Shown here: positions 31,673 through 57,175 of the stretch, piece after piece
Numbering within the stretch: the first letter of the stretch is position 1
How the letters are laid out: each line of letters starts with the position of its first letter
Assembly (NCBI GenBank): GCA_000231825.2
Contig: JH720325.1
Span: 112,842-176,841 of the forward strand
Origin: Tetrahymena elliotti 4EA
Lineage: Eukaryota > Ciliophora > Oligohymenophorea > Hymenostomatida > Tetrahymenidae
DNA length: 64,000 bases
Reading direction: 5' to 3'
Made by a program: the position numbers and the translations under genes
The notes under the pieces: generated by a model
Told to the model about the DNA's origin: nothing
Database searches by the model: none
What the model saw: the letters and a program-made list of their open reading frames with translations, nothing else

Positions 31673-32464
31673 ATGCAAATAATAAAGGTCAACGCATTCA
31701 AGTATTTTATTACTTAAAATACCCCTTTATCGAAGGTTACAGAAGATTGTAAAAATAAAGACTATTAACTTAATGAGGGAGTTGATGATGTAGAATAAAA
31801 TAAAGACTATTAACTTAATGAGGGAGTTGATGATGTAGAATAAAATAAAAATTATAAGAGTAAAGGAAAAAATATTAGTGAGAATCAATGCATGCATTTT
31901 CTCTTACAAAATTAGGATTAGAGAAGAGATAAACATGTAATATTATACCATTTATTCATTTATTCTATATTATTATTAATATTATTTATTTATTTTATTG
32001 CTTAAGATAATTTAGTGAGTAGTGTTGTTTGTAGATTTTATGTAAAAATTTATATCAAAGGGTATAGACATTCTAATTTAAGTGGCAAGGATGTTAAATT
32101 GCTTGAGTTGATTGTTATTATTTCCTATGAAATCTTTAGATTAGCATGGAGTCTTCAAAGATAATAGAAAAGACTGCTTAACATAGGAATAGTAGAATCA
32201 CACATTAGTGAGTTTTTAAGCATTTTAACAAAGCATTCACTTTAATTTAAGGAAGGGCTATCAAAACTAATAGGTTTTATATTTATTATTTAATTTTCCA
32301 GTATTATTTAAATGTTTGTGAACATTAATTATAGTATTTATCTATTTATTCATCTATTATACAACAAAGTAGTTGGTTGCTATTTATTCAAACCATTCTT
32401 TATTTGTTTATTTTTTCCACTTTCTTAAGTAAAAGCAAGTTTTTTTGTTAGTTCACTTCTTTGA
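31673..32464 (+). CDS. unknown membrane protein with an internal 15-aa tandem repeat, 263 aa
   Basis: A frame of 264 codons from ATG 31673 to TGA 32462-32464. Near residue 28 an exact 45-nt duplication (31754-31798 and 31799-31843) encodes NKDYQLNEGVDDVEQ twice, in frame. A hydrophobic segment follows (HLFIYSILLLILFIYFI), then a helical cytoplasmic-looking part (KDVKLLELIVIISYEIFRL) and a second very hydrophobic C-terminal stretch, giving two to four membrane helices. The last third is low-complexity Phe/Ile/Leu and might be unspliced intron or 3' UTR. Function unknown. Confidence 0.55.
31754..31843 (+). repeat. exact in-frame 45-bp tandem duplication
   Basis: Two perfect adjacent 45-bp copies within the coding region, each encoding NKDYQLNEGVDDVEQ. 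Exact identity in an AT-rich genome points to a very recent duplication or to selection on the repeat. Confidence 0.9.
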
Positions 32465-39396: not shown

Positions 39397-41706
39397 ATGT
39401 TAATTTAAAATATAAAATATTTTACCAATCTAGCTGATGTACTTCAATTTCTTTTAAGTTATAAACATAATTTAATTTTTATGTATTTAAAGTTACTAAA
39501 ATCTAATTTAACTTCTGACTAAAATCTTGGAATCTATCTCAGGTGAAATTATTAATTTTTTTAAAACAATAAATCTCTCTACTTTCATTTTTTAAGAGTA
39601 TTTCAATATTAATTGTGCTCTCTTAATAATCAACTAATTTAATTTATGAGTCATTGATGGTTAATTTAGGTTGGTTGCTTATTATTTGTTTGACTCTATT
39701 CTAATTTTTATGTTTTTCTCATTCCTTTTATATTTCTTTTTTTTAATATTCTTTTTATATTTTTTAAAAATTAGGGAAAATATTGGTGAAATGGGAGCAT
39801 AAACACTAGGGTTTGAGTTAGCGAAATGTTCTAATCTTTAAACTTTGTCTCTTGACCTTAAGTAAAAAGATTGTTACAATATTAATTAATTATGCAATAT
39901 GCAATGAATAAAAATAATTTTAATTTATGAGGAAGCAAGTAACTGAGTAATGGAGTGACTGATTTATTTTAGTAGGTTTACTTGATATTTATCTAGTTCA
40001 CTCGCTAATTAATTTTTATTTTTTTGTTTCCATATTTAATTCATATTTTTGTACACTCATTCTTTTAAATATTTCTTTATTTAATATTTATTTTAATGAT
40101 TTTTTAAAAAAGTGAGAATAATATTGGTGAAATGGGAGCATAAAAACTAGGATTTTAGTTAGCAAAATGCTCTAATCTCTAAATTTTGGATCTTAACCTT
40201 GAGTAAAAATATCGTTTCAATATTATAGTTATACAATTAGAATGAATAAAAAAGACATTAATTTATGAGCTAAAAACTGACTGATAGACAGATTAATTTG
40301 GGTTGGTTTACTTTAAATTTGTCTGGTTTCCTTATTTATTTATTTTTATTTGCTGTTTCCTTGTTGAATTCATTCTTTTAAATATTTCTTAAATATACGT
40401 TTTGATATTAAAAGATCTAATAATATTGGTGAGATGGGAGCATAAAAATTAGGATCTGAGTTAGCAAAGTGCTCTAATCTCTAAACTTTGACTCTTAACT
40501 TTGGGTAAAAATAATGTTTCTAATTAACTATGTATTTAGATTTACCACAATTCCTTGATAGCTGAATCTTGAGATTTCAAATATTTTTGGTTTAAAAATT
40601 GAATGATTAATAGTCCTCTTAAATTTTTTAACTCTTTTTATTAGAATTTATTAAATAGACTCAATGATTTTTTTGTTTTTTCATATTCAAAAAATGAAAA
40701 ATCTATTTACTAAATAGGATCAATTTAAAAGTATAAAAATTTTAGAGTATGTAACAGCCATATTTAAATCAAAATCTTATTACAATTAACAAACTTAATT
40801 TTAGATAAATGTCTTCTGGGATTGATCCTTATTTTAAAATTTCAAAAGGTATGAGAGACTGACTGATTAATTAATTTAGGTTGGTTTATATAATATTTAT
40901 TGAGATTATGCTCATTCATTATTTTTTTTTGGTTGTTGTTTCCTTATTTAATTCAAATTTTTGTTTTATTCTCATTTTTTTAAAGAGATCTTTATTAAGT
41001 ATTTATTTTTATAATTTTTTAAAAGGTTTAATAGTATTGGTGGAATGGGAGCATAAAAATTAGGATCTGAGTTAGTAAAATGCTCTAATCTCAAAACTTT
41101 AACTCTTAGACTTTAGTAAAAACAGTGTTTCAAAATTAATTTATTATGAAATTTAGAATGAACTAAAGATTTTAATTTATGAGAAACTGACTGACTGATT
41201 AATTTGGGTTGATTTACTGCTCTACCATTCAATCATTACTTTTATTAGTTTTTTATCTTTAATTAAAATTTCAATATTTATTAATTTTTTTAAAGCTGGA
41301 ATAGTATTGATGAAAAGGGAGCATACAAATTAGGAACTGAGTTAGCAAAATGCTCTAATCTCTAATCTTTGACTTTAAACCTTAAGTAAAAATAGCTGTT
41401 TCAATATTAATTAATTATACATCTAAAATGAATAAAAAAGACTTTCATTTATGAGAGAGAGACTCACTGATTAATTTGAGTTGGTTTACTTTATGCTTGT
41501 TTTGTTTATTCATTTATTAATTTTATATTTGTTCTTTCTATAATAAATTCAATTTTTGTTTTTCTCATTCTTTTAAATATTTCTTTCTTTATTCAATATT
41601 TATTTTTTAATTTTATAAAAGGTCGAATAATATGAGTAGAATAAGAGGATACAAAGTAAGATCAACAATTATAAAAGCAAAAAGATTAGTCACTATAAAA
41701 ACTTGA
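39397..41706 (+). CDS. LRR family protein, 7 exons, 225 aa (paralogue 4)
   Basis: Exons: 39397-39542 (146), 39775-39861 (87), 40113-40202 (90), 40415-40504 (90), 41026-41115 (90), 41296-41385 (90) and 41622-41706 (85). They total 678 nt with phase-2 junctions throughout. The first exon (MLIQNIKYFTNLADVLQF) matches the other paralogues. Five LRR exons follow, with cores such as NNIGEMGAQKLGSELAKCSNL. The last exon (STIIKAKRLVTIKT, stop) corresponds to the last exon of the 14986-19283 gene. It is the same fold with far fewer repeats: 5 against 15. The 521-nt intron 40505-41025 is about twice the usual size and may mark a lost repeat exon. The strand is opposite to the other three paralogues. 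Confidence 0.85.
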
Positions 41707-41991
41707 ATTGATTACTTTTAATGAAATAATAGATATTGCCTATTATTAAATGATCTAATAATTAATCATAATTATTGTTTTGTTTGAAAAATTACATTAA
41801 TTTCAACTTAATTATGAAGCTTCAAATAAATAAAGAATTCTGTCTAAATATTAAAACTTATCTATCTATCTTAATCATATTTCTTTTATCTATTTAAAAT
41901 AATTTTTATTTAATTTAAAATAACTTGATTTATAATTTCTTATTTAAAAAGTTATCTATTATTTTTATTAATTAAAAATCATCTTTTAATT
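41707..41991. other. tail-to-tail spacer between two LRR genes
   Basis: AT-rich, no gene recognised. Confidence 0.45.
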
Positions 41992-43712
41992 TCAAAAAAA
42001 AGTATTTAATAAAATAAACAGCGAGGTACTTGATACCAAAAGGCTGTAAGCATTTTAAATAAAGAAAAAGGCATAAAAATGTGAATGAAATCTGTGAAGA
42101 AGAAATAAAAATGAATGAATTAGCTAAACTAACTAATATCCAGTAAACAAACCAAAATTAGTCAGTTGTAACTTTTTAATTAATGTATTCAATTATTNNN
42201 NNNNNNNNNNNNNNNNNNNNNNNNNNNNNNNNNNNNNNNNNNNNNNNNNNNNNNNNNNNNNNNNNNNNNNNNNNNNNNNNNNNNNNNNNNNNNNNNNNNN
42301 NNNNNNNNNNNNNNNNNNNNNNNNNNNNNNNNNNNNNNNNNNNNNNNNNNNNNNNNNNNNNNNNNNNNNNNNNNNNNNNNNNNNNNNNNNNNNNNNNNNN
42401 NNNNNNNNNNNNNNNNNNNNNNNNNNNNNNNNNNNNNNNNNNNNNNNNNNNNNNNNNNNNNNNNNNNNNNNNNNNNNNNNNNNNNNNNNNNNNNNNNNNN
42501 NNNNNNNNNNNNNNNNNNNNNNNNNNNNNNNNNNNNNNNNNNNNNNNNNNNNNNNNNNNNNNNNNNNNNNNNNNNNNNNNNNNNNNNNNNNNNNNNNNNN
42601 NNNNNNNNNNNNNNNNNNNNNNNNNNNNNNNNNNNNNNNNNNNNNNNNNNNNNNNNNNNNNNNNNNNNNNNNNNNNNNNNNNNNNNNNNNNNNNNNNNNN
42701 NNNNNNNNNNNNNNNNNNNNNNNNNNNNNNNNNNNNNNNNNNNNNNNNNNNNNNNNNNNNNNNNNNNNNNNNNNNNNNNNNNNNNNNNNNNNNNNNNNNN
42801 NNNNNNNNNNNNNNNNNNNNNNNNNNNNNNNNNNNNNNNNNNNNNNNNNNNNNNNNNNNNNNNNNNNNNNNNNNNNNNNNNNNNNNNNNNNNNNNNNNNN
42901 NNNNNNNNNNNNNNNNNNNNNNNNNNNNNNNNNNNNNNNNNNNNNNNNNNNNNNNNNNNNNNNNNNNNNNNNNNNNNNNNNNNNNNNNNNNNNNNNNNNN
43001 NNNNNNNNNNNNNNNNNNNNNNNNNNNNNNNNNNNNNNNNNNNNNNNNNNNNNNNNNNNNNNNNNNNAAAGAAAGAAAAGGCTTAAAAATGTGAATGAAA
43101 TCTGAAAAAAAGAAATAAAAATGCATGAATAGCCAAATTAACTAATATCAAGTAAACAAACCCAATTAGTCAGTTGTTTCTTTTTAATTAATGAAACATT
43201 TATTAATTGATTCATTTATTCACAAATCCATAATTCATATTGAAACACTATTTTTACTTGAGGTGAAGAGTCAAAGTTTAGAGATTAGAGCATTTTGATA
43301 ATCCAGATACTAATTCTTAAATACCCTTGTCACCAATCCTATTTTTACTTTTAAAAAATAAAAAAGTATTTAAAAGAAAGAAAAAAGCATAAAAATGTGA
43401 ATGAAATCTGAGAAGAACAAATAAAAATGAATGAATTAGCCAAACTAACTAATATCAAGTAAACAAACCGAAATCAGTCAGTTGTTAGTTTTTAATTAAT
43501 GGATTCATTTATTAATTCATTCATTCACAAATGCATAATTCATATTGAAACACTATTTTTTTTTACCTAAAATCAATGCCAAGTTGTGAGTAAGAACTTA
43601 AATCAGAGCTTAGTAATTTTAAATAAATAAAAATAAAAATATATTTTTATATCTACAGAAATTGAAGTACTTTAGCAAGACATGTAAAATAATTTTTATT
43701 TTGTATTAGCAT
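41992..43712 (-). CDS. LRR family protein interrupted by an assembly gap (paralogue 3)
   Basis: Exon 1 is 43567-43712 (146 nt, MLIQNKNYFTCLAKVLQF) and exon 2 is 43258-43347 (90 nt, one LRR). Between 42198 and 43067 the sequence is N, so further repeat exons are missing. On both sides of the gap and in the first intron (43348-43566) the intron sequences are nearly identical, which means whole exon-plus-intron units were duplicated recently. A possible last exon lies at 41992-42043, after a TTACAG acceptor, encoding a short hydrophobic tail (LLVSSTSLFILLNTFF) and TGA. It differs from the last exon of paralogues 2 and 4, so the 3' end is uncertain. Confidence 0.6.
42198..43067. other. assembly gap of 870 N inside LRR paralogue 3
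   Basis: A non-round size suggests the gap was estimated from read pairs. Flanking introns are near-identical, so collapse or failure of a tandem array of exon-intron units is the likely cause. Unit length here (exon plus intron) is about 310 bp, so two or three repeat exons could be missing. Confidence 0.95.
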
Positions 43713-45621
43713 TTATTTATTTTTTTATTTGTTTAGATATTAAATTGAATATTATCTAATTAGTAATTATTAATATGAACAAATTAGATTAATTTGTGTA
43801 AACAAAATTTTTGCAAATTTAATCACAAAAATGAAATAATCTATCTGATTATTAATAACGAGATTCAGATACTACCACTGATTTGCAAAAATTAGGCAAG
43901 AACCAAATATTTTATTAAAATTCAATATTTTTAATTTTTAGGGAAATCAGATTTCAATATAAAATATTAGGCTTTTTATTAACATATATATATAAAGTAA
44001 GCTGAATTTTATTAAAATTAATTTATCTGAACTGGTTAAAAGTAGTGTATTCACTTCCAGATAACTTTAATCTTCAATTTCAAAAAAACAGTGATTTTTA
44101 TTCTTAAAAATTTCCTTTAAATTTACAATAATAAAAAGCTAAAATAAGGTAATAATTCCATTTTTAAAGATTTAATACTTTTCACAACAATTTTTTTTTA
44201 GTTTTTTATTTATGTGTGAAAAAGATATCTTTTTTTTGAGTACAAATTGATAGTTTTGATAATTTAAATTCTTCGTGATTAATTTATTTTGTGTTTAGAA
44301 TTAATTTTTAATTTGTTGACATGACAAATAGATATTAATATAGAAATAAATGATTACTAATTCTCAAATTCATTCAAAAAAATTAGATTTTAACTTCGAA
44401 GCTAAAAATGTCATATTTGATTCAAATATCCAATTTAAAATCCACAAGTTTTGAGATTTTTTTAATTATTATAAATATTTTGGCCTCAAAATATTTCTAA
44501 TTAAGTTAGGAATTCTAAAAATATTAAATAATTGTTATTATTTTCATTATCATTGATTTTAAAATTACCCTAGTGGAAATTCAATATTAAAATAATAGAG
44601 ATTTTGAGTTTTTTTTAAAGTTTTGAAGATATTCATTTGAATTATTGCTTAAATTATTATACCTATGAAATTACTTTGATAAAAATTATAAATAAAATAA
44701 TATTCTTAGATACAACTTACTTTATTGGCAATATCAGTTGCTATATATTTTAGCACTGGTTAATTAGATTACATAGTTCAAGTCCTTCACTTTAATTTAT
44801 TTAACAACCACTTAATGAAAATATCTTTTAAAAACTATTTATGAATTTCAATTTTACTTCAAATAAAGATTAAGATTAACCAGATTTGAGCACTTGCTGA
44901 TACCTCTAAAAAGAGCAGCACTTGCTCTAGGCAAAATTGAGTTGCTAATTTATTTTAAAATATTTATTAGAATCATGAGAAAAAGTATTTTATTTACCAT
45001 AAATCTAATGATAAATAATACATATTAGTAAATTATTATAATCCTTATCCTAAACTAGCCATCCCTTCTTCACTGATTGGGTATCAGTAGGAAAATCACT
45101 TCCATTAATTTGATCAATTATTTCAAAAACAAATTATTTTTATTCTAGAGTTTTAGATAAGAAAGATTTTTATCTTTTTGGAGTTAAGTAATTTTATTAG
45201 ATTATTATTTTGTTTTTGTTTGACTCTGTATTCCACTTACTCCTTCTAAATATTCAATTTAAATACTAAAATAACTTATCCAATACAATATTTAAAGCAT
45301 TATATTTTTTTTTAATACTATTTTTTTTACTTTTTTATAATCAATTCACAAAAGAAAGATTTTTTAATCTGTAATTTTGATAACATAGATAAACAAATCA
45401 ATAATTGACAAAAATATTTTAATTTACAAATTATTTTTTTTGGAATTAGTTTTTTTTGTTAAACTTTAATGAATAAGTGTTCTTTTCCATTATCACATAA
45501 CTTCCTTTTCATTATATTTATCAATTAATAAAGAATTTCATTTAAATATGGAATTTTATGTTTAAAAAGATTGATTATTTTATCTACATAACATAAAAAT
45601 AAATAATGAACTAAACATATA
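43713..45621. other. intergenic, 1.9 kb
   Basis: The first 220 bp resemble the upstream region of LRR paralogue 1 (560-760). A small perfect hairpin AGAGCA-GCACT-TGCTCT lies at 44912-44928, and its GCACTTGCT also occurs at about 44890. No protein gene recognised. Confidence 0.5.
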
Positions 45622-49487: not shown

Positions 49488-49904
49488 AATTCAACTTTTA
49501 ACTGTCTTTCTTATTATGTTTTGTTGTTCTATTATACTTCTATAATTAAATATTTACTTTAATAGATTTGTCATCTAATAATCAAAAGATTTTCAAATTT
49601 GACAATTATTTTTCCAAAAGCTTTTAATGGCTAATTTCCAACTTAAATCTCACTAAAATATTTAAATTTGGAGTTAAGATAGTACAAAGAAAAGCTAGAT
49701 AAATATTGTTTATGAAAAATTGCCATTAAAAAACTAAGGAACTGCAAAAAATATGATATTTATTCAGACGAAATAAGGATCTAAAAAAATATCCACTTTT
49801 TAAAAATGTACTATTCAATAAGGTACATTTATTGGTTACATTTCTTTTTTCTAAACTCAAAAAGACAAAAACAACTCTTTGTATTCATTTCAATATATTG
49901 AATA
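49488..49904. other. intergenic upstream of the tRNA genes
   Basis: AT-rich; no gene seen. Confidence 0.5.
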
Positions 49905-49977
49905 GCCCGCCTAGCTCAGTCGGTAGAGCGCAAGACTCTTAATCTTGTGGTCGTGGGTTCGAGCCCCACGGCGGGCT
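49905..49977 (+). tRNA. tRNA-Lys (CUU)
   Basis: A full cloverleaf with a seven-pair acceptor stem GCCCGCC/GGCGGGC. The D-arm TAGCTCAGTCGGTAGAGC and the T-arm GTGGGTTCGAGCCCCAC carry the internal A and B boxes. The anticodon stem CAAGA/TCTTG encloses loop CTCTTAA, anticodon CTT, which reads AAG lysine codons. No intron, and CCA is not encoded. A T-run follows within 10 bases and should end RNA polymerase III transcription. Confidence 0.97.
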
Positions 49978-50222
49978 ATAATTTTTTATTTTTAAATCTG
50001 TTGATAAAAAATAGTTTTTTTATCCTAAATCAAATATTTTAAAAATAAATAATTTATCTTAATTTTTTAAAAAGTAATTCAGATGGAAAACTGTTTAAGA
50101 TCATTAAACATATAGTTGTACTTTACAGTTTTGAAAAAATGATGATAAGATGTTGATTATTACACAATTAAAAATTTCAAAATTCAATAAAATAAAGGCT
50201 AATTTTTAATATTTATCATATA

Positions 50223-50295
50223 TCCCCTATAGTCTAGCAGGTTAGGATAGAAGGTTTTCACCCTTCAGACCCGGGTTCAAGTCCCGGTGGGGGAA
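50223..50295 (+). tRNA. tRNA-Glu (UUC)
   Basis: Acceptor stem TCCCCTA/TGGGGGA (one G-T pair) and T-arm CCGGGTTCAAGTCCCGG. The anticodon stem GAAGG/CCTTC encloses loop TTTTCAC with anticodon TTC, which reads GAA and, by wobble, GAG. No intron. A run of eight T at 50300-50307 is a good RNA polymerase III terminator. It lies about 250 bp downstream of tRNA-Lys on the same strand. Confidence 0.97.
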
Positions 50296-50478
50296 ATATT
50301 TTTTTTATTATTTTAGCAATAAATATCTCATTTATAAATCTTTTAAACATTTCAGAGTATCATTTTTAAAATAAATTTATCTCTAAATATTTTGTATTGT
50401 AATTGATATTTTTTATAGTCACATACATCTTTGATAACTCTAATTCTTAGATATTAAATCCATTAAAATTTCTTATAG
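50296..50478. other. spacer between tRNA-Glu and the first recognised exon of the micro-exon gene
   Basis: Less than 200 bp. The true 5' exon of the micro-exon gene may lie here or farther upstream; a frame in phase with exon 50479-50483 stays open from about 50440, but no start codon was found. Confidence 0.4.
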
Positions 50479-53400
50479 ATTCTGTAAAACTACTAACATA
50501 TTTGATCTATAAAAATACAGTAGAAATTGTAGAATAAATCTTGATGAAAAGAGAAATATTTTACAAAAATTTAATAAAAATAACTATTGAAATACTGAAA
50601 ATATCATTAATTTTGTGAGGGATAATTAAGATAATCCTATAAATTAACATTTTAAAACACATCTATGAAAAAATAACTGTCTTTTAATATATAGTAATAT
50701 GCGGCTTCTAGCTCAGACCATAAAATTATTTAATTGAAGGGTATTTTTAAAATCATACATGCTGAATTTATTGATTTATTTTGATATTAAAAAGCATTTA
50801 AACTCAAAATAAAAATATATATATTAAATTCAATTTGAAATAAAAATAGCTTGTAATTTTTAGAGATTAAATTAGACAAATATGGTTAAATTGTAAAAAA
50901 AATAAAATAAAATATAGTGAGTATAAATATTTTAAGACAGATTTTAGATTCAAAAACAGAATAAACTTAACAAATTTTAGCGAGTAATAAATTAATTGAT
51001 AAATTTGAAACTAACTTAATAACTATTAATTATATTTTTGGCTTGTTTTTGGAATAATTAGATAGTTAGATGGTTAGTAAAATAATAGAATTAATTTATC
51101 ATTTTTCCTTAAAATTAAAATAGGAAGTATAATTGCTGAACTTTATTTATTGATAACTTTTGTTTTTATCTAAAATTCCATAATAAAAATCAGAAAGTAA
51201 TAAATAAAAATTAAAGAATTTGAATAAGTTCCTTAGGTGTAATGTTTGTTAAATATAAATAATCAAGAAAGTAATTTTTCAATTATTTAAGATGAGATGA
51301 ATCTTAATTTGTTTAATATTAAATATAGATGGTAATGTTTTTTTACAAAAAGTAAATAAATTAAAATATTTAGTTAATTGTGTGAAAAAAATAGGATGTA
51401 AAGAATTTAATTTGTTTGTTCTCATAAGCAGATGAAGAAATCAACCTTAAATTGAAAAAAGAGGGTAGTTGATTGATCATTTTAAATTCATTTTAATACC
51501 AAAAAATGATAAACATATTGAATGAAATGATACATCATTAACAATAATAATAATGATAATTTTTATAAATAGAAGGTTAATATTGATTGATGTCCTTTTA
51601 TTTAACAGTGAATAAACTCTAATGAAAAAGGATGTAAAAGTTTAAAATAATTAGTATTAAAGAGAATAAACCATATTTATTTTCAAATTAGCAAGTAAAG
51701 TTTAGATACATTTTCAATTCTAAAAAAGAAGCTAAATTAAATGCTAAAATGAATAGACTGTAATATTTTTAATAGAAATAGATATTAAATAATAAATTTA
51801 ATTAATATTTTATTAGGGAGTAATTGTTTTTTGATGGTTTAATCAAATTTAACCAATAATTTAAATAAAAAATAAAATTTAAAAGAGATCACAACAACAA
51901 GTAAAATTATTTAAAAGGTAAAATTAAAAAAAAACAAAATATTTTTTTTATTTGAATAGGAAACAGTAAGAATTTAGAATCATAATGAAATAAAAATGAT
52001 AATTTAATAAATTAAAATATTTTCAAATTACTTTTCTAAATTTAAACTAATAAAATGAACCACAAAAAAATAAAAGGAAGTAAATCAATCAATTTATTTA
52101 TTTAAAAATATTCTTAATTGATAAATAACTCTCTACATCAATATTAGCATGTAAAATTAAATAGTCTTAATTGAAATTCAGTACTTATTCTTATTTAAAT
52201 GAAGGACGTAATGAATTTATTAATTTATTTATTAATCAATTTTTTAATTAACTATTTTGCTAATTTTATTTATTACTCAAATTTTTAATTAATGAAATAG
52301 ATTGTAAGAATATTCAATACTTTATCTTTTGTCTTTGTCAATTTATTTTGATCTTTAAAAATAGACTGTAAATCTATTTCTGTTTTTTTTTGATTTTAAT
52401 TTAAATTTAATTATTTTTAAAATAGGGAGTAATTCTCAATATTTATTTTATTTCTTGAAAGAAAAAAATCTTAAAATATCTTGGCAATCTAAAATAGCAA
52501 GTAATTCTTTGTCATCTTTAAATTGAATAAATATTTATTAAATAAATATTAAAATAGGAGGAGGTAGGAGCTTCCAATCACTCAGATTAATTTGAATAAA
52601 TTTATTTTGAAACTTAAAATAGCGAGTAACACTTTCAATTATTTATTTCTAAAAATTTAAATAAAATTCAATCTTCTAAAGCAAGTAACAAGAAACAGTT
52701 TGGAGTTAAATTGATAGATTTTTATAAAGGAAAGAGTAAATAAATTGAATAACCATTTGAAAGTAAAGAATACATTCATATTGATAATGAATTAGGATGT
52801 AATAAAATATGTTTCTGATGAATTAAGCATATCTTAAACTTAAAAAGAGGGTGAGACTTTAATTTGAAAATACTTTTAATTACTATTTTTCGCTAAAATA
52901 GGAAGTAATATTTAAAAATGAAGATATAAAGAATTTGATGAATTTTTCTAATTATTATTGCTTTAGATTGTAAACTTTTCTATTATTCGAATAAATAAAT
53001 AATAACAAACTAACTTAAATAGTTTGTAATACTTTGAAATGAATAAGATAAGAATTAACTTCAACTCCTTTCCTTAATATTTAAATTAATAAAAAGTTTG
53101 TAAAATATTTTTAAAATCAACTCTAAAATTATGAAAATGTTATTTGGTTTTATTTAAAGAATGTAAGTTAGTTAGTTAGTTAGAGATTTAGACAATCTTT
53201 TTACAACAAAATGGCTCAAATACATTATAATTTTTCTTCTTAACAAACAGCAAGTAATTTTTTTAGATTGTTTTAAATAAAAATGCTTTAACAACTTTAT
53301 TATTAAATAAGTGGGTATTCTTCTATATGATAAAATAAATTAATGAAAGAATCAAATAATATTTTTATTTAACCAGCAAGTAAAAGTTATTTTAATTTAT

Positions 53401-55324
53401 TAATAACAAGATAAATTAATAAATATTATTTATTGAACAGGAAGTAATTTAAATAATTTAATAACCTTACAAGATTTAGATTTGATTACTCAATAATTTC
53501 TATTTTTAAATTAGACTGTAAATAATACTTTTGAAAAAATTAAGTTAATAAATGATCTTGAAATTAACATGGAATTTGCGAAATAGCTAGTAATGTTAAA
53601 ACCTTATTCAAATTCAAATATTAATTATTTATTTTCAAAATCTAATAATAGCCTGTAATATTTTTAGATGATTTTAGGTTGTTCTATAAAAATCAAAAAA
53701 TATCTATTTCAAAACAAAATAGATACAAGTAATATTATTAGAAAGTTTTAAAGTTAACATGATTTATTTACAAAATTAATTCTAAATAGCCGGGAGTAAT
53801 ATCTTTAATAATTAAAATAAATTCAATGACTTTTTAAATAAAAATAGTTTGAGGTAATCAATATTTTCATAAATTTGAATTTAAAAATATTGGAAATAAT
53901 TTTAAATAAAAATAGCGAAGAGTAATATTTTGAAATATTTTAATATCTGAAAGAGGCTCATTTACCTTTTGAATCAAAAATAGAGAGAAGTAATATTGCT
54001 ATATTTGAAGATAATAAAATATTTTTTCAAACTTTCTTATAAAAACAGCAAGAAGTAATTAACATGCATTAGCAGATACTTCAAATACATACTTTCAAAA
54101 TAACAGATTGTAAATTTATAACTTATTGAAATCACAATATACAGAATAAACCTTGGCGTTTGAATGTTGTAAAATAGGTTGACGTAATATTTTAAATTAA
54201 TTAAATATAAAAATAAATTAAACTGTTCAATATAAAAGTGAGTAATTCATTAAACATTGATTAGGAAACATTTTCCAAAGAAATAAATAATGAATATTTA
54301 TATTGGCTGACTCACTCTATAATAATTATTATAATAGATTGTAAAATTATTTGATTTAATCAAAAATAAATAATTATATATATATATGTATAGTACCCTA
54401 AGGTACTGCCTTTTCAGGGCTATACACTGAAATTTTGGATAATATTGATTTAATCATTTACTTTTTTTTCTTTTCTGATTTTGGTTTTTAGTGAAAGTTT
54501 TTTTGATCTAAATAAATAATTAAATATAAATTTAAAATGAAAATTAGTAAGTAAATTAAAATAAACAATTGCCAACAAACAACTAAAATATTTTGGATTA
54601 TTCAAAAATTAATTCAAATTAGCTGGTAAATAATATTAAAATTTAAGTTGATTTAGAATAAATTAATTCTTTTAATTTATGTAAAAGTGAGTAAGATTTA
54701 CAAGATATTTAGAGTAGATGTTAATCATTTCAATTAATTATTTGGCAGATAGTAAAATTTATTGGGAAGAGCAAACTGGATATAATATTTATTTTTTTAA
54801 TAACCTTTTCATTTAGTGAGTAAATTTTAATTATTGAAGATGAAGGATGAGTAAACTATAAAATAAATATTCTTAGGCTGTAATTACATTAATATAGGAA
54901 ATTAAATTGTTTTTAATGTCCAATTTAAACATTAGCTTGTAAATCAAAAAATATCTTTTGATTAGAAATATTGAACTGATTTAAATAAATAGCTGGTAAA
55001 TTTTTTATTTTAACTTGATGATTTATTTGAAAATAGAAAGTAGAACTTATAAATTAGAAAAAATTGAGCAATTGATTAATAAAATATATTTTTATTTTCA
55101 ATAATAATTAGGTAAAATATATTAAAAATATACTTTCTTTATCAATGGACAACCTTTTAAAATATTCTTATGTTAAAAAGAGAGTAAATTTGTTCAATTT
55201 ATTTATTTTTGAAAAATAAAAACTTATTATTTAGAGAGATATGAAGATCATCGAAGAAGTGTCCTAAGATTCAAGAAATACAAATAAAGAAGACACAAAT
55301 TCAAGTCATGAAATAAATGGTTGA
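50479..55324 (+). CDS. micro-exon gene: about 62 exons of 3, 6 or 15 nt
   Basis: From 50850 to 55183 the sequence repeats the pattern 3' splice site, 3 nt (or 6 or 15), 5' splice site, every 50-110 bp; one interval is 207 bp. Examples: AATAG|CAA|GTAATT (52498), AATAG|CGA|GTAACA (52623), AATAG|ATACAA|GTAATA (53723), AATAG|CCGGGA|GTAATA (53790). Larger in-phase exons lie upstream at 50521-50614 (94 nt) and 50717-50740 (24), with a 5-nt exon at 50479. Joined with all introns in phase 2, the micro-exons give one open frame: FDEQLDGQKKKWIGRIKLED, HNNKKQNMTLLDKRSDKKEI, GKFFLINGKKLYLYNRDLSE, EENKKLLTEFNCEYELF, then TGA split between the exons at 54993 and 55037. A last larger exon (from 55235) would be 3' UTR. 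Both Gln codon types (TAG, CAG) occur in this frame. Start codon and function are unknown, and I recognise no homologue. Phase 0 is also open from an ATG micro-exon (51329) to a TGA micro-exon (54239), but there every Gln is CAA, unlike other genes here. Confidence 0.75.
54393..54420. repeat. dispersed double-hairpin element, copy 2
   Basis: After TATATATATATGTATA come GTACC-CTAA-GGTAC (54393-54406) and a GCC...GGGC hairpin (54408-54420), then TATACACTG. It corresponds part by part to the element at 26133-26159. It sits inside the longest intron of the micro-exon gene (54341-54547, 207 bp against about 70 bp usual), so it looks like an insertion. Confidence 0.6.
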
Positions 55325-57175
55325 TTTAAAAGGATTAATAAGTTATAATACATTAAATATGTAAGTAATTTATGTATGCAATTGTTACTTGTTTATTTAT
55401 ATCTTAATAAAAATAATTAAATGTTTTTTTTCTCTCTTTAATTCTTTACATTTCATAGAAGCGCTGTTTTAATTTTAAATGAAATTCCTTAATAAATTAA
55501 ATGAGAGATAACTTCCTAAGCTCTTTTTATGTATTAATTTCTTTCAATATCAAATCTAATATAAAATCTGCAAAATAATTAGATTATTCAATAATATTAT
55601 TTTTAATTAGAAAATAAATCAGAGAAAAAATTAATTTAGTACCTTAATTTAAATGAATAAAATCACACACATTTTATGTGTAAATAAAATTGAATAAAAA
55701 GTTATTTTGATGATTAATTTATAATATTCAATTTTTTAAATTTTGAAAATTTAAGTCATTCTCTTTAATAATGATTTTCAGCACAAAATAATTTATTTCT
55801 GATTTTCAGAAATTGTAAAATCATCTAAATATCAAATTAAGTAAATACAGTCAAAATTTAATTGATAAATTTATTCTTTTTTTAATTGTTTTCAGGTTTC
55901 ATTAATTGCTTATTAAATAAATTTTTGGGCTAAGAGTATGATAAAAAAATTTCAAAGTAGAAATTTAAATTTGAACTTTCTTTTAGTGCTTTTTAAAAAT
56001 ACCTTTTTACAATAATTTCTGTATTACATTACCTTGACTTTTCTCTATGAAGAAAAAATAGATTTAAGCTTTAAATATTTTCTCATTCTCTAAAGTTTAA
56101 TTATTTAATTACCTTCTTTTAATGTTTCTTAAAAATTTTTTTTAAAAAAATAAAAAATAAGTGAGATTTAGGATATTAGTTACTATCTAATCAAATTAGA
56201 TGACTTGATATCTTCGTTTTTATAAAAAATAAAGTTATCTCATTTATTTTTTTATAAAAAGAATGTAACCAAAGTAAAAAATGTAATGTAAATCAAGATA
56301 AATAATCATTTTATTCATAAATATTAAGATAAAATAAATTTTCACTTCTTAAAAGATAAAAAATAATAAATTAGTTTTAATATCAAGTAAAAGAACAAGC
56401 AATTAATGTAAAAAAAGATAATGAGTTTAATTTGTATTTTTAAAAATTAAACTAAAAAGTATTTCACAAATATTTTAATTCCTAGATTTTTTTATCATTT
56501 GATTTTGTGAGCTTTGATATTTCCTTTATTTAAATTACCATGATTAATATGATTAATGATGATAAAGGTTAAATATTTTTAATTGAACAGCGGGTTTTGA
56601 ATGCTTGGCTAGTGCTACTTGTATTGATACTACATAAATTTTTTATGTTTCTGAATAATATCTAGTAAATAGTATAATTTAATCATAAATTAGTTTTGCA
56701 TTAATTTATAGATGTTCCATTAAACATAAAAGATCAGATTTTATACTTGCATTTACATATATCGTATATTTACACATTTTGAGAGATAAAAAACTTGAAA
56801 AAATGAATTAGATTGCTTTATCAAGCTGCGGAATGATAATGTTAACTATCTTTACCTTAGTTAAATCTTAATGAGTGAGTGAATTTAAAAAAACAAATGA
56901 AGCAGGGTAGGTAGATTGATGCCACCAACAATATTTTATGTGTACAGTAATTAATCTAAAGAATTGACTTTGTAAAAGCAGAATTAAACAAACATCAAGA
57001 TTAACTAAATCAAAAAAGCAATTCGCTGATTTTACTAAAAAGTAATTAATTATTTTTGACAAAAAGAGAAGAATAATAACATACATATTAAAGAAAACAC
57101 ATGGAGTTTCCTTGCTTTTTTTCTGACTCATAAGAATAAGAAAATGCAAAAAAATAATATGAAAACGAGTAGTAC
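55325..57175. other. intergenic, 1.85 kb
   Basis: AT-rich with no recognised gene; the frame at 56868-57149 on the minus strand is not convincing. A short C/G-richer patch (AACAGCGGGTTTTGAATGCT) at about 56586 is unexplained. Confidence 0.5.

What the first reader, a model, noticed from the sequence alone, without database searches (positions are those of the whole stretch)
50850..55183. A gene built from dozens of single-codon-sized exons
Between 50850 and 55183 I count about 62 segments bounded by AG on the left and mostly GTAA (some GTAG, GTGA, GTAT, GTTA) on the right. Fifty are 3 nt, ten are 6 nt and two are 15 nt. No segment breaks the multiple-of-three rule, and introns between them are not repeats of each other. 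Joined, they yield about 90 codons without a stop in phase 2, with protein-like hydrophobic patterning. Exons this small cannot be defined by ordinary exon definition. They raise the question of how the spliceosome recognises 3-nt exons and whether introns are removed stepwise. Micro-exon genes are known in schistosomes, but there exons are longer and fewer.
Basis: partly seen in the sequence, partly recalled or inferred. Interest (0 to 1): 0.97.

Follow-up and report, generated by a model that had tools for sequence, protein, structure and literature searches.

The report
Gene with sixty one-codon exons
A ciliate genome carries a family of eleven related loci, and in the six read here dozens of conserved pairs of splice signals (about sixty in a complete copy) enclose pieces mostly just three letters long; joined, these pieces are predicted to spell a small, variable protein, which would force the splicing machinery to assemble a message almost one codon at a time.

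Summary
AG-N3-GTAA occurs 42 times in 4.4 kb; shuffles average 1.2 (largest 7 of 1000). The strongest evidence comes from the window's own genome: DNA searches find ten further loci. In the five that I could read, the AG/GTAA pairs and 3/6-nt lengths recur. A splice-chain search blind to frame, with exon lengths 0-18 nt equally likely, picks 237 exons in six loci; 235 are multiples of three, 5 of these being zero. Read in intron phase 2 the loci give related peptides (IGKxSLINGKKIY...) without a stop until a TGA near the 3' end; phase 0 has stops in five of six loci, phase 1 in six. Exon letters differ more (28%) than introns (14%); composition explains part. I conclude: a real, unannotated gene family, most likely spliced stepwise. 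No RNA was available; start codon and 3' end are open; no known protein matched. Closest kinds: schistosome MEGs, aphid bicycle genes, Tetrahymena 90-bp-exon LRR arrays.

The parts
50850..55183 (+). Array of 62 predicted micro-exons (50 x 3 nt, 10 x 6 nt, 2 x 15 nt) separated by 61 GT-AG introns (41-207 nt, median about 61), all of one phase, predicted to be phase 2
   Evidence: Exon starts: 50850 50918 50981 51062(15) 51124 51194 51268 51329 51395 51462 51573 51631 51692 51757 51817 51886(15) 51960(6) 52077 52148 52205 52301 52365 52426 52498 52558(6) 52623 52682 52730(6) 52796 52848 52902 52967 53023 53097 53160 53251 53312 53377 53441 53515 53587 53652 53723(6) 53790(6) 53848(6) 53916(6) 53984(6) 54049(6) 54107 54178(6) 54239 54338 54548 54623 54688 54749 54817 54877 54936 54993 55037 55181; 3 nt unless noted.
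52301..54183 (+). Part of the array whose exon order and lengths, with few changes, and peptide core (IGKxxLINGxxxY...SxEENxK) recur in the more distant paralogues C40, C24a and C24b
50717..50740 (+). Possible 24-nt upstream exon (donor GTATTT), open in phase 2; not confirmed by paralogues
   Evidence: aligned stretch of P82 differs and P33 reads N
50544..50614 (+). Candidate first coding exon (ATG, 71 nt, donor GTGAGG, ends in phase 2); weak
   Evidence: both paralogues read N here
54993..55039 (+). Predicted stop codon TGA split between micro-exons CTG (54993-54995) and AAA (55037-55039); CTG|A also in P82 and P33
55110..55113 (+). Zero-length site: acceptor AG (55110-55111) directly followed by donor GTAAAA; same in P82 and P33
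55235..55420 (+). Predicted terminal exon (acceptor ending at 55234 or 55238; 3' end approximate), mostly 3' UTR in phase 2; a coding tail only if exon 54993 is skipped
54376..54521 (+). 146-nt insertion in one intron, flanked by a 12-nt duplication AAATAAATAATT (54364-54375 and 54510-54521); a dispersed repeat, absent at this place in P82 and P33

Best explanation
The region holds 62 AG...GT splice-site pairs around pieces of 3, 6 or 15 nt that recur in related loci of the same genome, and it is most likely one protein-coding gene, predicted to be spliced from these pieces in intron phase 2 into an mRNA for a small (about 80-residue) protein. Shown here: the pairs, their conservation among paralogues, the multiple-of-three rule, and related peptides that fit best in phase 2. 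Inferred: the introns are ordinary GT-AG spliceosomal introns recognised across the intron (about 60 nt from GTAA to TAG), because the exons are too short to carry information. Inferred: two spliceosomes cannot sit on both sides of a 3-nt exon at once, so removal would be sequential; each splice brings a codon up to the growing 5' exon and places a fresh GTAA donor 3 nt behind the junction, a ratchet (recursive splicing) in which nearly every tooth carries one codon and a few carry none. Inferred, with less confidence: the array lets single codons change, appear or vanish without breaking the frame, and the family uses this to diversify a short protein built on an IGxxSLINGxxxY motif; what the protein does is not known.
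For: Excess over chance. Ten further loci by DNA match. In P82 (L040) and P33 (L042+L041) nearly every site is kept: over the first 60 exons, gaps set aside, GT 118/118 and 117/117, AG 114/118 and 116/118, introns 86.2% and 86.1%, exons 72.4% and 71.9%. Much the same 3/6-nt length pattern in fragments C40, C24a, C24b at about 70% identity. Frame-blind chain with uniform length prior: 235 of 237 exons are multiples of three in six loci (scores 33-57, 29-62 exons); best of 47 control scans scores 4.1, and the ten best controls hold 2-4 exons. Of the indel runs in the whole array 51 of 69 (P82) and 59 of 74 (P33) are not multiples of three, yet the exon-length differences that I matched all are (lists). 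Phase 2 has no stop in the 12 pairs compared and the highest BLOSUM sum in 12 of 12 (stops scored -4); in a base-matched shuffle phase 2 has p<0.05 in 7 of 9 pairs, phase 0 in 1, phase 1 in 3 (pairs share sequences). Third codon positions of phase 2 differ most (identity 65% against 75% and 76%).
Against: No transcript evidence. The first coding exon is not established. The TGA falls before the last micro-exons and the terminal exon in all three full copies, yet those are kept too. Phase 0 has no stop in C40. By count of identical residues phase 2 is alone highest in 6 of 12 pairs, tied in 5 and lower in 1 (C40-C24b, 19 against 22 in phase 0). For W-P82 phase 2 is not better than the shuffle (p 0.21). 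For the window alone, absence of stops in phase 2 is not unusual (0.78 expected, p 0.43) and codon usage does not separate phases 0 and 2. No annotated protein, Pfam family above cut-off or convincing solved structure matches, although the protein collection holds Tetrahymena thermophila proteins; that search needs shared 5-residue words and can miss short divergent proteins. The chain search took its splice-site weights and intron length from the window array; the other loci are paralogues, not other species.
Confidence: 0.9

Rival explanations
1. A non-coding array of a bipartite DNA- or RNA-binding motif TAG-N3-GTAA, in which N3 is a free spacer; conserved flanks and variable centre follow from binding, not from splicing.
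For: Flanks conserved, centres variable; spacing of neighbouring sites mostly 50-80 nt.
Against: Centres are multiples of three in 235 of 237 chain exons; related peptides, best in one phase; no N3 or N6 site on the other strand of the region; both ends look like intron ends and the DNA between is intron-like in composition.
Confidence: 0.05
2. A decayed or silent gene: the array is a relic that is no longer transcribed or spliced.
For: No expression data; one intron holds a 146-nt repeat insertion; in P33 one exon is reduced to zero length and one is deleted.
Against: Among window, P82 and P33 the splice dinucleotides are 97-100% kept while introns differ by 12-14%, and the phase-2 frame is open in all three up to the shared TGA. 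A relic would have lost both.
Confidence: 0.05
3. A real gene in which many micro-exons are cassette exons: alternative skipping of single codons makes a pool of slightly different proteins from each locus, as proposed for schistosome MEGs; the CTG exon at 54993, whose inclusion brings a stop, would be a regulated one. Not exclusive of the main explanation.
For: All curated exons are symmetrical, so any subset keeps the frame; by my reading of the alignment, skipping 54993 would open a C-terminal reading into the last exon in window, P82 and P33.
Against: Nothing here tests skipping; donors are uniformly strong (54 of 62 GTAA).
Confidence: 0.3
4. Chance or composition artefact of a very A+T-rich sequence.
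For: GTAA and TAG are short words in a stretch with about 18% G+C.
Against: 42 against a mean of 1.2 and maximum of 7 in 1000 shuffles; no second array in the rest of the window or in about 240 kb of other sequence from the genome; recurrence in paralogues.
Confidence: 0.001

Closest known systems
Schistosoma mansoni micro-exon genes (MEGs)
   Same: Many very small, mostly symmetrical exons; fast-evolving paralogous families (PMC10526429, abstract and passages; PMC4350168, passages).
   Different: There 10 to 20 exons of 6-81 bp, mostly 15 bp (the abstract says 3-81), and introns of 0.1-5 kbp. Here about 60 exons, 50 of them 3 nt, introns of about 60 nt, in a ciliate; sequence relation not tested.
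Aphid bicycle and megacycle genes
   Same: Many unusually small internal exons, nearly all of phase 2, rapid protein divergence with conserved gene structure; megacycle has more than 100 microexons (PMC9168663, passages).
   Different: Bicycle genes average about 17 exons; megacycle encodes about 2000 residues with over 100 microexons, so up to about 20 codons each; here about 80 residues from over 60 exons.
Tetrahymena LRR genes with arrays of exactly 90-bp exons
   Same: Probably the same genus, arrays of equal exons with an extreme phase-2 bias, expanding paralogues (PMC6564038, abstract and passages).
   Different: Exons are 90 bp and encode leucine-rich repeats; the paper proposes expansion by duplication. 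Here exons are 3 nt, no leucine-rich repeat is found, and neighbouring introns are hardly alike.
Recursive splicing at ratchet points (Drosophila)
   Same: Acceptor directly followed by donor; stepwise removal; apparent zero-nucleotide exons (PMC8605326, passages).
   Different: There within long introns; here introns of about 60 nt, and nearly every step would leave one codon in the mRNA. Stepwise removal is inferred here, not shown.
Isolated ultra-short exons (the single-nucleotide exon of Arabidopsis)
   Same: Shows that a spliceosome can include an exon of one nucleotide (PMC4674806; title and start of abstract in a search listing).
   Different: A single exon in an ordinary gene, not an array that makes up the coding sequence.

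Membership tests
Schistosome MEG-type micro-exon gene | Coding region mostly of very small symmetrical exons | tested here: met
   235 of 237 chain exons in six loci are multiples of three, none over 12 nt in that run; curated window list at most 15 nt; splicing itself not shown
Schistosome MEG-type micro-exon gene | Introns long, 0.1-5 kbp | tested here: not met
   41-207 nt, median 61
Schistosome MEG-type micro-exon gene | N-terminal signal peptide | not tested
   First coding exon not established
Aphid bicycle gene | Many small internal exons, nearly all phase 2 | tested here: met
   All exons in one phase; phase 2 by stops and paralogue peptides
Aphid bicycle gene | Sequence or structural homology to bicycle proteins | not tested
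   No comparison with bicycle sequences was made
Tetrahymena 90-bp-exon LRR gene | Tandem 90-bp exons coding leucine-rich repeats | tested here: not met
   Exons of 3-15 nt; no LRR match among Pfam results at E up to 10 and 1
[quoted passage not shown]
Recursive splicing | Acceptor and donor abutting (ratchet point) | tested here: met
   AG|GTAAAA at 55110-55113 in window, P82 and P33; AG|GTAACA in P33 in place of exon 52682
Recursive splicing | Lariats or intermediates showing stepwise removal | not testable with these tools
   No RNA data
Spliceosomal GT-AG introns | GT...AG ends, A+T-rich interior | tested here: met
   54 of 62 donors GTAA, 40 of 62 acceptors TAG, interior 16% G+C; not compared with annotated introns of this genome

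The most novel reading that the evidence does not exclude
A gene family whose messages are assembled codon by codon: a recursive spliceosomal ratchet in which some sixty steps each add one or two codons (and a few add none), so that each codon is an independently mutable, removable cassette, and the coding letters evolve faster than the introns that carry them.
Probability: 0.5. Interest if true: 0.97.

Novelty: new variant of a known kind. Interest (0 to 1): 0.93.

Why it matters
Exon definition, minimal exon size and stepwise intron removal are usually studied with single microexons. Here a whole coding sequence appears to consist of exons too small for exonic signals and too close for simultaneous spliceosomes, in what is probably Tetrahymena, a genus that can be grown and transformed in the laboratory (general knowledge), with natural variants in which exons are gained, lost or reduced to zero. 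It makes the order of intron removal and the lower limit of exon size directly testable. It also points to genes that junction mapping can miss: the Tetrahymena RNA-seq study seen here required at least 8 matching bases on either side of a junction (PMC3274533, passage).

Tried and rejected
Chance: rejected by shuffles and controls. Intron phase 0 (ATG exon 51329 to TGA exon 54239 looked gene-like): rejected, because four TGA exons interrupt it in the window, because TGA (54688) reads CGA in P33, stop to Arg in phase 0 but Cys to Cys (TGT to TGC) in phase 2, and because peptides agree better in phase 2. Codon usage alone could not decide: exon order did not matter for the best frame (p 0.19 and 0.43); phases 0 and 2 had about equal p (0.012).

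Protein identity: single peptides and the alignment A1 gave nothing in Pfam above cut-off (best NA37, E 0.008, 16 bits against 24.6), nothing in the protein collection, in PDB with one peptide nothing and with A1 four weak hits (phage P68 tail fibre and a minor structural protein, E 0.007 and 0.010; AcrIIA15 and Hemolysin II, E above 5), taken as chance. A search of the own genome with the peptide found nothing, which proves little, as members in micro-exons could not match. Diversifying selection: not claimed; dN/dS by a simple NG86-type count is 0.83, 0.35 and 0.75, synonymous sites are fast too, part of the exon excess is base composition (expected identity 0.81, seen 0.72; p 0.0016 and 0.0002), and in the last third of the array exons (0.84, 0.79) are close to introns (0.86, 0.85). 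The G+C-rich stretch at 54390-54440 looked like a small RNA; Rfam gave nothing reliable and the genome search shows a dispersed repeat. A cluster in L017 was inspected and rejected as chance. Literature: the listings of searches (15 of 55 listed) and 89 of an open-licence library show no paper on such genes in ciliates; subscription papers are mostly not held.

Left out of the codon comparisons: exons after the TGA, an extra TGT exon of P82 and P33, and, for the distant pairs, everything outside 28 exons; one search ran 9 of the 12 pairs. Exon strings were aligned by hand, with five exons (window 51573 and 54749, one each in P82, C40 and C24a) that the chain had skipped.
Full report
WHAT WAS CLAIMED AND WHAT IS THERE. 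Reading the sequence and curating the list (recounted; the site at 51062 taken as 15 nt) gives 62 segments: 50 of 3 nt, 10 of 6 nt, 2 of 15 nt, 240 nt in all; 54 donors are GTAA and 40 acceptors TAG. The introns have median 61 nt (41-207), 17% G+C against 35% in the exons, and lengths spread over all residues modulo three. One search looked only for multiples of three.

NOT CHANCE. AG-N3-GTAA occurs 42 times in 4.4 kb (N6: 9), other spacings near background, none at N3 or N6 on the opposite strand. In 1000 dinucleotide shuffles of the region the mean is 1.2 and the maximum 7. Three in a row at intron distance: 19 matches, none elsewhere in the window, none in 100 shuffles. Genome-wide the single motif is not enriched (52,611 against 66,470 for the pattern read backwards), and in about 240 kb of other sequence from the genome (22 stretches of 10 kb and 8 of 3 kb, partly overlapping) no other array appears; the largest cluster, in L017, was chance on inspection.

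THE ORGANISM. The P450 gene at 10313 reads through with table 6 (TAA and TAG = Gln) and ends in TGA; its protein is 86% identical over its full length to a Tetrahymena thermophila protein. So this is probably another Tetrahymena species or a close relative. The window is contig C33:112842-176841 of a 90-Mb genome in 134 contigs.

A FAMILY. A DNA search with 50300-55500 (65-82% identity over matches longer than 300 bases) and one with a related locus find in the same genome: C33:49.9-54.6 kb, C82:192.8-197.5 kb, C40:352.7-356.6 kb, C40:600.9-603.6 kb, C24:37.7-41.8 kb, C24:44.1-45.6 kb (part), C24:65.2-69.9 kb, C24:301.0-304.9 kb, C106:133.8-135.9 kb and C3:1135.1-1136.2 kb (parts). Ten besides the window. 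I could read five: P82 (L040) and P33 (L042+L041) over the whole array, C40 (L043), C24a (L044) and C24b (L045) over 2.1-2.2 kb each. The other five are known to me only as matches.

CONSERVED ARCHITECTURE. In P82 and P33 nearly every micro-exon site is present, mostly with the same length. Over the first 60 exons, gaps and the repeat insertion set aside, GT is kept at 118 of 118 and 117 of 117, AG at 114 of 118 and 116 of 118, introns at 86.2% and 86.1%, exons at 72.4% and 71.9%. In the fragments at about 70% identity the order of 3- and 6-nt exons is nearly the same, including the run of six 6-nt exons. The exon-length differences that I matched are all multiples of three: 15 to 12 nt at 51886 (P82, P33), 3 to 6 nt at 51329 (P82) and at 52426 (C40, C24a, C24b), 6 to 3 nt at 52558 (the same three), 3 to 0 at 52682 (P33), exons 51194 (P82) and 52796 (P33) deleted, one 12-nt and one 3-nt exon present in P82 and P33 but not in the window, 6 to 9 nt at 54178 (C40). 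Yet of the indel runs in the whole array 51 of 69 (P82) and 59 of 74 (P33) are not multiples of three.

A FRAME-BLIND TEST. I scored chains of acceptor-exon-donor units with splice-site weights and an intron-length term but no coding term. With exon lengths 0-18 equally likely, the best chains in the six loci contain 237 exons: 174 of 3 nt, 51 of 6, 4 of 12, 1 of 9, 5 of 0 and 2 of 1 nt (both in P33); 235 are multiples of three. In the window this strict setting keeps 30 exons in one chain (21 of 3 nt, 9 of 6). Scores are 33-57 against a best of 4.1 in 47 control scans (22 stretches of 10 kb on both strands, the rest of the window, and its reverse strand); the ten best controls hold 2-4 exons. 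With a prior favouring 3 nt the window chain has 61 exons. Caveat: the weights and intron length were set from the window array.

READING PHASE. Joined in the three phases, the window gives 0 stops in phase 2 up to exon 54993, 4 in phase 0 and 3 in phase 1; for the window alone 0 stops is not unusual (0.78 expected, p 0.43). Across the six loci phase 2 has no stop before the shared TGA, phase 0 has stops in five (not C40), phase 1 in six. In phase 2 the loci give related peptides: window LLDKRSDKKEIGKFFLINGKKLYLYNRDLSEEENKKLLTEFNCEYELF, P82 LLDIENLNKEIGKLSLINGKNIIEYNRKLSREENKKLWIEFNIEYELF, C40 LWENYSSEKQIGRVSLINGERIYHWDYDKSKEENLKSLT, C24a LWESSDWKKQIGKVSLINGKKIYDWNDDLSDGENYKSCKLN, C24b LWQNFFWKKRIGRVSLINGEKIYQYNKNLSEEDNFK (five exons that the chain had skipped were added by hand). 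Over 12 pairs phase 2 always has no stop and the highest BLOSUM sum (stops scored -4); by identical residues it is alone highest in 6, tied in 5, lower in 1. When partner letters are shuffled among positions with the same letter in the first sequence, phase 2 exceeds the shuffles at p<0.05 in 7 of 9 pairs, phase 0 in 1, phase 1 in 3; W-P82 is not significant, and pairs share sequences. Third positions of phase 2 differ most.

THE EXONS CHANGE FASTER THAN THE INTRONS. Exon identity (72%) lies below each of 2000 sets of random intron segments for both paralogues. Part of this is composition: G and C differ more often; with base-matched intron sites 81% is expected, p 0.0016 and 0.0002. The excess is in the first two thirds of the array (exons 65-70%, introns 83-87%); in the last third exons are 84% and 79%, introns 86% and 85%. 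Simple dN/dS is 0.83, 0.35 and 0.75, so positive selection is not shown; the unusual point is that coding letters vary while the splicing scaffold is held.

ENDS OF THE GENE. Upstream, a 24-nt exon (50717-50740) and a candidate first exon from ATG 50544 fit phase 2, but the paralogues read N there or differ, so the start is open. At the 3' end all three full copies carry a TGA split between exons 54993 and 55037. Beyond it lie the rest of 55037, exon 55181, a zero-length site (AG|GTAAAA at 55110-55113, also in P82 and P33) and a terminal exon. By my reading, if exon 54993 is skipped phase 2 continues into the terminal exon; whether that happens is unknown.

HOW IT LIKELY WORKS. From general knowledge, splice-site factors cover more than 3 nt on each side. 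PMC5014332 (passages) holds intron definition to be probably predominant in lower eukaryotes with small introns, and suggests that Tetrahymena may have two modes. Flanking introns would have to be removed one after the other; after each step the exon just joined plus its GTAA forms the next donor. Zero-length sites can only work this way. This is recursive splicing with a one-codon payload; it is inferred, not shown.

COMPARISON WITH THE KNOWN. Schistosome MEGs: 10-20 exons, mostly 15 bp, introns up to 5 kbp (PMC10526429, abstract and passages). Aphid bicycle genes: about 17 small exons on average, nearly all phase 2, fast evolution; megacycle over 100 microexons for about 2000 residues (PMC9168663, passages). 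Tetrahymena LRR genes: arrays of exactly 90-bp exons with over 98% phase-2 introns (PMC6564038, passages). The constant phase 2 recurs in the last two and here; why is open. The listings of the literature searches named in Tried and rejected show no ciliate gene of this kind in the open library.

VERDICT. A real and, as far as the searches reach, undescribed gene architecture: new variant of a known kind (micro-exon genes), at its extreme. The missing piece is RNA. On re-checking the calls I lowered confidence from 0.91 to 0.90 for the phase-0 result in C40 and the residue-identity ties.

Noticed in passing
54364-54521: A dispersed repeat (146 nt with one copy of its 12-nt duplication AAATAAATAATT; core of about 70 nt with a hairpin and AAATTTTGGA) sits in one intron of the array; one search scored 40 strong genome matches, this one included (86-100% identity over 60-106 bases; 192 candidates), and it is absent from P82 and P33 at this place.
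   Followed up: partly
426-470 and 43580-43625: A short stretch (..TGAGTAAGAAYTTAA...AGAGCTTAGTAAYTTTAAATA..) occurs twice on the + strand, with a similar end near 39504 on the - strand; possibly another dispersed element.
   Followed up: no
49904-49978 and 50223-50295: tRNA-Lys(CTT) and tRNA-Glu(TTC) just upstream of the array.
   Followed up: no
41775-43300: Long open frames on both strands in the most A+T-rich part of the window (12% G+C in 42001-44000, the lowest 2-kb step); probably non-coding.
   Followed up: no
31752-31849: Perfect tandem repeat, period 45, 2.2 copies: a multiple of three, perhaps inside a coding exon.
   Followed up: no
50741-50849 (aligned P82 and P33): P82 and P33 have a further micro-exon-like site AG|TGT|GTA upstream of exon 50850 that the window lacks.
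   Followed up: partly
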